Below are positions 20,105 through 20,934 of a stretch of 64,000 nt of DNA, in pieces (the stretch's first letter is position 1; each line of letters starts with the position of its first letter). The position numbers and the translations under genes were made by a program. Location: the IMG/VR virus record IMGVR_UViG_3300044722_000002, positions 1 to 64,000 of that record. One strand, written 5' to 3'. A model generated the notes under the pieces. That model saw only the letters and a program-made list of their open reading frames with translations, did no database searches and was not told the DNA's origin. The DNA is from a virus.

Positions 20105-20137
20105 AAAGCCGGAAGGGATTGCTCCGCCACCGGCTTT
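20105..20137 (-). terminator. Candidate terminator of the RNA ligase transcript
   Basis: AAAGCCGG (20105-20112) and CCGGCTTT (20130-20137) form a stem just beyond the ligase stop codon. Read on the minus strand the stem is followed by TTCTGTATC, a short T tract. The loop is 17 bases, long but acceptable. Confidence 0.5.
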
Positions 20138-20167: not shown

Positions 20168-20785
20168 CTAAAAGTCTTTCGTCTTAAGCTTCACTATCAA
20201 CCGACTTCCCTTCTTGTCGAACAGCGTCTCTGCCGGACGGCCTACAAGCCCTTCTGCTCGCATCTGGCCTTCGCCTAGAAGTGACGGAAATCCTTGCTTA
20301 ACCATTTCCGTTGCCTGCTCAAGTGAAAACTCGCCTATGAATGGTACCGCGTCGAGTCCGAGTCTTGCGGCCACGTCGCAAGTGTTATCCCAGTTCAGCC
20401 ACCAGCGATCCGCAACGAGAACGTCAAATGCGATAAACTTTTTGGTCGGCGAATACAGTCCGCCTTTCTGGATGCCCGCGCCGTACCCCTCGCCATAAAT
20501 CACCGCGCTTGATTCGGGGAAAATCTCAGCCATCTTTGCCGTTGATACGTTCTCGTAAAGATACCTGATCAGGTCGCTATGAATTTGCGCGTTATCCGTC
20601 TTACCGCCAAAGGTCAACGTACCGTTAGCCCAAATTGCGCGGATATTCGTACCGTCGATTTTTTCTGTCCACTGCCAGGACTTTAGGAGCGAGTAGGTGG
20701 GGTTTTTGAGCTTGGAAGAGTCAACCTTAAAGGTTGTCATGTCCCGCTCGTAGAGGGTTTCGATTTTATGATAGGTGTTGTCCAT
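20168..20785 (-). CDS. RNA ligase of the Rnl2/nucleotidyltransferase superfamily
   Basis: 205 residues with the ordered covalent nucleotidyltransferase motifs: motif I EKIDG (K42 the expected AMP acceptor), motif III around IYGEG (E99), the FIAFDVL strand, motif IV EGLVGRP (178-184), and motif V LIVKLKTK (196-203). Length fits a catalytic domain with almost nothing beyond. Phage ligases of this kind seal broken RNA, often tRNA cleaved by host defence. Its mRNA leader contains a tRNA-like cloverleaf (20835-20904), and it has its own terminator, so it looks monocistronic. Confidence 0.85.
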   Translation of the reverse strand: MDNTYHKIETLYERDMTTFKVDSSKLKNPTYSLLKSWQWTEKIDGTNIRAIWANGTLTFGGKTDNAQIHSDLIRYLYENVSTAKMAEIFPESSAVIYGEGYGAGIQKGGLYSPTKKFIAFDVLVADRWWLNWDNTCDVAARLGLDAVPFIGEFSLEQATEMVKQGFPSLLGEGQMRAEGLVGRPAETLFDKKGSRLIVKLKTKDF

Positions 20786-20834
20786 TATTCAGTCTCCCGC
20801 TGTAACTTTGGTTTCGTAACTTGTGAAAGAGCTG

Positions 20835-20904
20835 GTTGCGGTCGCCGGTAACGATCCGGCTTTCAGGATTATGAAATGCGTGACCCTGTTCACTTCCCCG
20901 CAAC
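20835..20904 (-). ncRNA. tRNA-like cloverleaf in the RNA ligase leader
   Basis: On the minus strand four perfect stems nest as in tRNA: acceptor GTTGCGG/CCGCAAC (20898-20904 with 20835-20841), D-like GTGA/TCAC with loop ACAGGG, anticodon-like TTTCA/TGAAA with a 6-base loop, and T-like GCCGG/CCGGC with the 7-base loop ATCGTTA. CCA follows CCGCAA. There is no variable loop and the anticodon loop is one base short, so it is not a normal tRNA. It could be a decayed tRNA-Met-like gene or a regulatory mimic. It lies about 50 bases before the ligase start. Confidence 0.45.
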
Positions 20905-20908
20905 AGAG

Positions 20909-20917
20909 ACTATAACA
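20909..20917 (-). promoter_or_regulatory. Extended -10 promoter for the ligase leader
   Basis: TGtTATAGT on the minus strand (20909-20917) is an extended -10 box. It places the RNA start at or within a few bases of the first base of the cloverleaf at 20904. A TTGACA at 20922-20927 is too close to act as its -35. Confidence 0.45.
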
Positions 20918-20934
20918 CGGCTGTCAAGACCTTT

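What the first reader, a model, noticed from the sequence alone, without database searches (positions are those of the whole stretch)
20785..20904. RNA ligase mRNA starts with a tRNA-like cloverleaf
On the minus strand the leader has four perfect nested stems in tRNA order, a T-loop-like ATCGTTA, and CCA after the acceptor. An extended -10 (TGtTATAGT, 20909-20917) places the RNA start at or close to the first acceptor base (20904). The RNA ligase begins about 50 bases downstream of the cloverleaf. A tRNA mimic ahead of an RNA-repair ligase could be a sensor or autoregulator, or a bait for host tRNA nucleases whose cuts the ligase would seal.
Basis: partly seen in the sequence, partly recalled or inferred. 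Interest (0 to 1): 0.75.

Follow-up and report, generated by a model that had tools for sequence, protein, structure and literature searches.

The report
Damaged phage tRNA before RNA ligase
The cloverleaf in front of this phage's RNA-ligase gene is a tRNA gene with a damaged anticodon arm, one member of a structurally odd phage tRNA family that standard gene finders mostly overlook.

Summary
The cloverleaf is real, but it is a relic tRNA gene rather than a purpose-built leader. Its true extent is 20833-20902 (-), 70 nt: T1, A73 and CCA. A covariance model built from 43 other sequences, with the window and its nearest relative left out, finds it at 62.7 bits, E 6e-10 in 441 kb. ARAGORN and the Rfam tRNA model miss it. 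The nearest relative, L003 (ligase 75% identical), has the same promoter-like stretch and tRNA body with an intact CAU anticodon arm, then a tRNA-Leu, then the ligase. Outside the anticodon arm the two agree at 54 of 58 columns, and two of the four differences are a coupled change of tertiary pair 18:55. No other ligase locus searched has this leader; the ligase instead recurs beside ordinary tRNA genes. The wider result is a phage tRNA(CAU) family, 45 distinct sequences, with a non-Watson-Crick acceptor/T junction and swapped elbow pairs that covary without exception. ARAGORN of 45.

The parts
20909..20914 (-). -10-like hexamer TATAGT (extended, TGTTATAGT to 20917)
   Evidence: sequence; CTGAAA-18-TATAGT scores 9 of 12; TATTAT at the same place in L003. 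Not significant alone: 4 promoter-like sites found in the region, shuffle mean 1.0
20922..20927 (-). TTGACA, conserved in L003 seven bases before the -10-like hexamer; too close to serve as its -35
20833..20902 (-). tRNA(CAU)-family element with damaged anticodon arm; T1 at 20902, CCA at 20835-20833
   Evidence: R1 62.7 bits, E 6.1e-10 in 441 kb; alignment A2
20898..20902 (-). acceptor 5' strand (1-5), pairs with 20841-20837
20880..20893 (-). D arm GTGA-ACAGGG-TCAC; G18, G19 at 20886, 20885
20864..20878 (-). anticodon region: CAT kept (20873-20871), stem broken, two nt shorter than in the family
   Evidence: three non-standard pairs in the R1 alignment
20844..20860 (-). T arm GCCGG-ATCGTTA-CCGGC; A54/U58 swapped, U55 C56 kept
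20842..20843 (-). G66 A67, opposite G7 and G6: non-Watson-Crick layers of the family
   Evidence: 6, 7, 66 and 67 were part of most search patterns
20786..20832 (-). spacer with Shine-Dalgarno-like GGGAG; its last part (from 20812) aligns to the stretch that starts at the 3' end of tRNA-Leu in L003
   Evidence: blastn blocks 20941-20833 and 20812-20172
20168..20785 (-). RNA ligase, PF09414, 205 aa; KIDGT, EGLV and KLK motifs conserved
   Evidence: Pfam E 6.4e-19, PHROG RNA ligase, alignment A1
20110..20126 (-). terminator-like hairpin and T run after the ligase
   Evidence: 2 found, shuffle mean 1.2: weak

Best explanation
The element is a phage tRNA gene of an initiator-like tRNA(CAU) family that stands first in a short operon with an RNA ligase. 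The unit was most likely promoter, tRNA(CAU), tRNA-Leu, ligase, as L003 still has it. In the window phage the tRNA-Leu is gone and the tRNA(CAU) has recently lost a sound anticodon arm, so it probably no longer decodes. Transcription starts at or next to the first tRNA base, the tRNA body is cut off by the usual tRNA-processing enzymes, and the ligase is translated from the remaining mRNA. The ligase sits there because phage tRNA genes and tRNA-repair ligases are useful together against host tRNA-cutting enzymes. Shown: family membership, conserved body and promoter stretch, broken arm, ligase family, tRNA-ligase adjacency. Inferred: transcription start, processing, loss of the tRNA-Leu, decay rather than selected change, function of the ligase.
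For: R1, built without the window and L003, scores the window 62.7 bits and L003 76 bits. L003 carries the intact arm and a tRNA-Leu called by ARAGORN and Rfam. Window and L003 agree at 54 of 58 columns outside the anticodon arm against 10 of 18 inside; two of the four outside differences are the coupled 18/55. The leader-and-ligase DNA block is 71.8% identical, the promoter-and-element block 78.8%. The two blocks are separated where tRNA-Leu lies in L003. No tRNA is found anywhere in the 73-kb window record by RF00005. Ligase-tRNA adjacency: 8 of 80 ligase loci hold an ARAGORN tRNA, all on the ligase strand, and in 5 the nearest is within 33 nt (L331, L334, L342, L347, L386). Family loci: 580 of 580 tRNAs in the 35 loci with at least five lie on the element's strand.
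Against: The window's acceptor, D and T arms are flawless and its 18:55 pair is a coupled replacement relative to L003, which is unusual for an old pseudogene; either the damage is recent or the body is still selected. A 5-bp alternative hairpin exists in the broken arm (3.3% by chance). No second copy of the damaged arm was found (near-identical records may be hidden), so an assembly error that hides an intact gene is not excluded. Only one relative (L003) shares the unit.
Confidence: 0.72

Rival explanations
1. A regulatory tRNA mimic: the ligase (or a host tRNA enzyme) binds the cloverleaf in its own mRNA and represses translation, as threonyl-tRNA synthetase does with its leader in E. coli (recalled).
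For: The cloverleaf is joined to the ligase mRNA 47 nt before the start codon; the body is conserved between two phages more strongly than the ligase gene.
Against: No other ligase locus searched has the leader at family level. In L003 a tRNA-Leu lies between it and the ligase. Its relatives are tRNA-cluster genes.
Confidence: 0.08
2. A decoy: a tRNA body without a usable anticodon arm that occupies host tRNA nucleases or processing enzymes while the ligase repairs cut tRNAs.
For: Only the anticodon arm is altered; acceptor, D and T arms and the elbow pairs are intact. Phage tRNAs with altered anticodon loops are proposed to evade anticodon nucleases (PMC10264068, section read).
Against: One example only; the relative has an intact arm; nucleases that cut anticodon loops would hardly be held by a body without one (inference).
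Confidence: 0.1
3. An assembly or sequencing error: the true gene has an intact anticodon arm and is a working tRNA.
For: All other parts are intact; the damage is confined to a short stretch.
Against: No long homopolymer there. The exact arm was not found in other viral contigs, but that search cannot settle it.
Confidence: 0.15
4. Chance fold of an untranslated leader.
For: Folding z-score is only -1.34.
Against: 62.7 bits with a model that excluded it.
Confidence: 0.01

Closest known systems
Phage tRNA clusters with tRNA-Met(cat), e.g. Acinetobacter phage Acibel004, Pseudomonas phages VCM and Kremar
   Same: CAU anticodon, GCGG/CCGCA-A-CCA acceptor end, tandem tRNA genes
   Different: those read here (Acibel004, VCM) lack the G6G7/G66A67 junction; VCM and Kremar carry theirs unannotated
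Bacterial initiator tRNA (tRNA-fMet)
   Same: weak or absent 1:72 pair, G2-C71, C3-G70, G4-C69, A73, CAU
   Different: U11-A24 in place of A11-U24; three G-C anticodon pairs in only 4 of 43; non-Watson-Crick junction layers; swapped elbow pairs (the defining fMet features are recalled)
T4 RNA ligase repairing tRNA-Lys cut by PrrC
   Same: phage RNA ligase and phage tRNAs against a host anticodon nuclease (described in PMC10264068)
   Different: here the ligase is a 205-aa PF09414 protein, no PF13671 (AAA_33) kinase match in the record, target unknown
RtcR-controlled RNA repair operon regulated by damaged tRNAs (PMC7790460; start of abstract in the listing)
   Same: RNA ligase expression tied to tRNA
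   Different: protein sensor and RtcB-type ligase; I saw nothing there of a tRNA gene in the leader
E. coli thrS leader (recalled)
   Same: tRNA-like fold in an mRNA leader
   Different: here the leader is not conserved with the gene it precedes

Membership tests
tRNA gene (Rfam RF00005 / ARAGORN) | reaches the standard detectors | tested here: not met
   ARAGORN 0 genes; RF00005 no match at E up to 1 in the record or up to 10 in the stretch
tRNA gene (Rfam RF00005 / ARAGORN) | acceptor, D and T arms, A73, CCA, elbow pairs 18:55 and 19:56 | tested here: met
tRNA gene (Rfam RF00005 / ARAGORN) | 5-bp anticodon stem with 7-nt loop | tested here: not met
   two nt shorter, three non-standard pairs
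Phage tRNA(CAU) family with G6G7/G66A67 junction | match to a covariance model built without it | tested here: met
   62.7 bits, E 6.1e-10
Phage tRNA(CAU) family with G6G7/G66A67 junction | non-Watson-Crick 49:65 | tested here: not met
   standard pair in 3 of 45 by the alignment: window and L003 (G-C), L158 (A-U)
Bacterial initiator tRNA | 1:72 not a strong pair; G2-C71, C3-G70, G4-C69 | tested here: met
   U1-A72 in the window; 2-4 and 69-72 were part of the search patterns for the family
Bacterial initiator tRNA | A11-U24 and three G-C pairs at the foot of the anticodon stem | tested here: not met
   U11-A24 in 45 of 45 (U11 imposed by the pattern, not); three G-C pairs in 4 of 43; stem broken in the window
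Autoregulatory tRNA-like mRNA leader | leader conserved with the gene it controls | tested here: not met
Autoregulatory tRNA-like mRNA leader | binding of the gene product | not testable with these tools
   needs the purified protein
RNA ligase PF09414 | HMM over cut-off and nucleotidyltransferase motifs | tested here: met
   69.2 bits against cut-off 27; K42-x-D-G, E178-G, K199 invariant in 7 of 7; motif roles recalled

The most novel reading that the evidence does not exclude
Phages carry an overlooked class of initiator-like tRNA(CAU) whose acceptor/T junction and elbow are rebuilt: G6.A67, G7.G66 and N49.C65 (or G7-C65 with a bulge) in place of Watson-Crick pairs, and A18/G55, A19/U56 and A54/U58 as coupled replacements of the near-universal elbow pairs. 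The rebuilding lets these tRNAs start phage translation while being poor substrates for host tRNA-fMet nucleases or for EF-Tu, and some phages pair them with an RNA ligase as a second line. The window phage has gone one step further and kept the body without the anticodon arm.
Probability: 0.25. Interest if true: 0.78.

Novelty: new variant of a known kind. Interest (0 to 1): 0.5.

Why it matters
Phage tRNAs are proposed to escape host tRNA nucleases, and one published survey reports that phages generally avoid encoding tRNA-fMet where a nuclease targets it (PMC10264068). If initiator-like tRNAs are present but invisible to ARAGORN (6 of 45 called) and often to the Rfam tRNA model (found in 5 of 20 loci), such surveys undercount them. 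The coupled elbow changes give a natural set of replacements for the G18-U55, G19-C56 and U54-A58 interactions, which makes a textbook invariance (recalled) directly testable. The window element itself is a modest case: a damaged copy.

Tried and rejected
Rejected: chance fold; dedicated leader conserved with the ligase; plain intact tRNA; general linkage of the tRNA family to this ligase (only L003 and its duplicate L008 among the 65 family loci carry it within the locus; 8 of 39 family records carry some PF09414 ligase over the cut-off). The first pattern, a D-arm string, returned six stretches of which only L008 was real; I dropped L009-L013, which lack the rest of the tRNA. The genome scan gave 46 stretches, of which I kept 4 (L181, L203, L212, L224); the other 42 lack the CAU loop and look like coding sequence by eye. 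Of the 60 stretches, 59 have CAU and L179 is a chance match. A bacterial control for the elbow classes failed, because the 42 bacterial stretches held no usable tRNA. Near relatives in cultured phages: none by DNA for the ligase locus. No solved structure by sequence for the ligase. I searched for kinase PF13671 only, not RtcB or other repair enzymes.

Limits: positions 2-7 and 66-76 were imposed by the patterns, so their constancy in the family is not a result. One search printed wrong 6:67 and 7:66 columns (index error, off by two); one search replaces it. One search counts T-arm pairs by fixed offsets, which misreads the few members with an 8-nt loop; one search uses the alignment. The statement that G18, U55 and C56 are near-universal in cellular tRNAs is recalled.

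Full report
1. Place and observation. The window is part of a 73,122-base virus record. Its minimum-energy fold holds four stems, CCA is present, and TGTTATAGT lies at 20917-20909. The ligase ATG at 20785 is 47 bases after CCA. The energy is not exceptional: z -1.34, 22 of 200 shuffles fold as well. ARAGORN finds no tRNA in the window, and the Rfam tRNA model does not match at E up to 10 in the stretch or up to 1 in the whole record. So folding alone decides nothing.

2. Homology. The ligase (PF09414, 69.2 bits) has relatives in six viral contigs. In one, L003 (ligase 75% identical), the upstream stretch has the same TTGACA...TGTTAT promoter-like stretch and the same body with an intact anticodon arm CGAGG-CTCATAA-CCTCG, then an ordinary tRNA-Leu(TAA), then the ligase. 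Pattern scans led to a family. One search (whole tRNA pattern with TCATAA) gave 58 stretches. One search (anticodon left free) gave 60, of which 59 have CAU: L021 and L110 with TCATAT, 57 with TCATAA; L179 is chance. One search (bacterial and archaeal genomes) gave 46, of which 4 are real. The distinct sequences number 45 including the window, aligned as A2.

3. Membership. A covariance model R1 was built from the 43 sequences other than the window and L003. Over 85 sources and 440,929 bases it ranks L003 first (76 bits) and the window second (20902-20833, 62.7 bits, E 6.1e-10); the next match is an ordinary tRNA at 38.6 bits. In the alignment of the window to R1 every helix is standard except the anticodon stem, which is two nt shorter and has three non-standard pairs. 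The CAT triplet remains at 20873-20871.

4. Recent damage. Outside the anticodon arm the window and L003 are identical at 54 of 58 columns; the four differences are 18, 26, 52 and 55, and 18/55 change together (G18/U55 against A18/G55). Inside the arm they agree at 10 of 18. By blastn the shared DNA of the neighbourhood falls into two blocks: promoter plus element up to CCA (20941-20833, 78.8%) and leader plus ligase (20812-20172, 71.8%). The second block begins, in L003, at the tail of tRNA-Leu. I infer that the ancestor had both tRNAs and that the window phage lost tRNA-Leu and then damaged the first. No tRNA gene is found elsewhere in its record. That the damage is recent is inferred from the flawless rest; decay, rather than selection or an assembly error, is the most likely reading and not a shown fact. 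The exact damaged arm was not found in other viral contigs, but near-identical records may be hidden.

5. Ligase and tRNAs. An alignment of seven ligases (invariant K42-x-D-G, E178-G, K199) fetched 80 loci, the best of 264. R1 finds the element in none of them except L003's contig (one search covered the window, L002-L007 and 78 of the 80; L329 and L331 were left out as the contigs of L002 and L003). But ARAGORN finds tRNAs in 8 of the 80, all on the ligase strand, and in 5 the nearest is within 33 nt of the ligase: tRNA-Leu before it in L331, tRNA-Glu before it in L342, tRNA-Phe after it in L334, tRNA-Gln after it in L386, and a cluster of 19 tRNAs around it in L347. In the other three (L375, L404, L406) the tRNA is 263 to 426 nt away. 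I did no formal test of this clustering. Conversely, of the 65 family loci only L003 and its duplicate L008 hold this ligase, and 8 of 39 family records hold some PF09414 ligase over the cut-off anywhere. So ligase and tRNA meet because both live in tRNA operons (inference).

6. The family. In the 35 family loci with at least five ARAGORN tRNAs, 580 of 580 tRNAs lie on the element's strand, and 24 of 35 have another CAU tRNA; the median distance to the nearest tRNA is 10 nt in the 52 of 65 loci that have one. The helices covary: 97.2% of cells paired, 125 cells with double changes against 34 in shuffles and 9 to 19 when slid. ARAGORN of 45 of this family, 5 of them with a canonical TTCRA loop, against 58 of 75 of related CAU tRNAs without the special junction. 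The Rfam tRNA model at its cut-off finds the element in 5 of 20 loci tested (L029, L145, L146, L153, L160): enough to show that the canonical end of the family is tRNA by the reference standard.

7. Junction. Among 118 distinct sequences pooled from all scans, 43 have G6G7/G66A67 (the 45 of A2 less L021 and L161, which do not fit the looser pattern). In the 75 others 6:67 and 7:66 are both standard in 65, and only 2 lack both; 49:65 is standard in 65 of the 75 by fixed offsets. In the G6G7/G66A67 group 49:65, which no pattern imposed, is standard in only 3 of 45 by the alignment: window and L003 (G-C) and L158 (A-U) (one search counts 2 of 43 by fixed offsets). Position 65 is C in 44 and U in 1 of 45, so G7-C65 or G7-U65 with a bulged base is an alternative pairing (inference).

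8. Elbow. In A2, 18:55 is G-U in 24, A-G in 19 and G-C in 2; 19:56 is G-C in 43 and A-U in 2; 54:58 is U-A in 26, A-U in 16 and G-G in 3. No mixed type occurs in 45. The coupling reaches other phage tRNAs: of 1,043 distinct CCA-ended ARAGORN tRNAs in the viral loci, 1,024 had a usable T arm. Those with U55C56 had GG in the D loop in 945 of 962; those with G55C56 had AG and no GG in 17 of 21 (3 had GG, 1 neither); those with U55U56 had GA in 20 of 23 (1 had GG, 2 AG) (5 without a readable D arm set aside). The G55C56 class spans 11 isotypes and the A54/U58 class 13. Related sequences are not independent, so the P values overstate; the spread over isotypes is the better argument. I have no bacterial control.

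9. Function. T1:A72 (or C.A, A.A, G.A in others), G2-C71, C3-G70, G4-C69 and A73 fit an initiator, but U11-A24 and the lack of three G-C anticodon pairs (present in 4 of 43) do not. I call it initiator-like. The -10-like hexamer ends seven bases before T1, so the transcript would start at or within two bases of the tRNA end (inference; the promoter match is not significant alone).

10. Literature. Searches listed no paper whose title or abstract start describes this family, the A18/G55 replacement, or a tRNA-led ligase operon in phages; most subscription papers are not held. PMC10264068 (passages, section 4) proposes that phage tRNAs escape anticodon nucleases and says that phages generally avoid tRNA-fMet where VapC targets it. 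All other papers were seen only as listings.

Noticed in passing
L338 (record G015:6500-6627, L408) and record G030:107243-107370 (L409): Two phages with this ligase carry RF00005 matches of 128 nt (42.1 and 47.4 bits); the second looks like tRNA-Ile(GAU) with about 60 nt in place of the variable loop.
   Followed up: partly
L343, about 1890-1990: An ARAGORN-negative stretch ending in a T-arm-like hairpin and CGCAACCA lies directly before the ligase ribosome-binding site; by eye a further damaged tRNA.
   Followed up: no
L404 and L406, 4578-4633: R1 matches at 31.4 bits, cut off by the end of the locus, about 1.9 kb after the ligase.
   Followed up: no
L175 2474-2549 (Pseudomonas phage VCM): An initiator-like tRNA(CAU) without annotation in the record; a matching stretch in phage Kremar also has none.
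   Followed up: partly
L145 1262-1471 and L153 1583-1805: Group I introns (Rfam RF00028, 78.6 and 60.5 bits) near the family tRNA.
   Followed up: no
L003 2808-2985: The leader after the tRNA seems duplicated: a copy with ATGGAC stands before tRNA-Leu and another before the ligase.
   Followed up: partly
window 20909-20927 (-): TTGACAnnnGTGTTATnnT occurs once in the window and is kept in L003; spacing is too short for a sigma-70 -35/-10 pair.
   Followed up: partly
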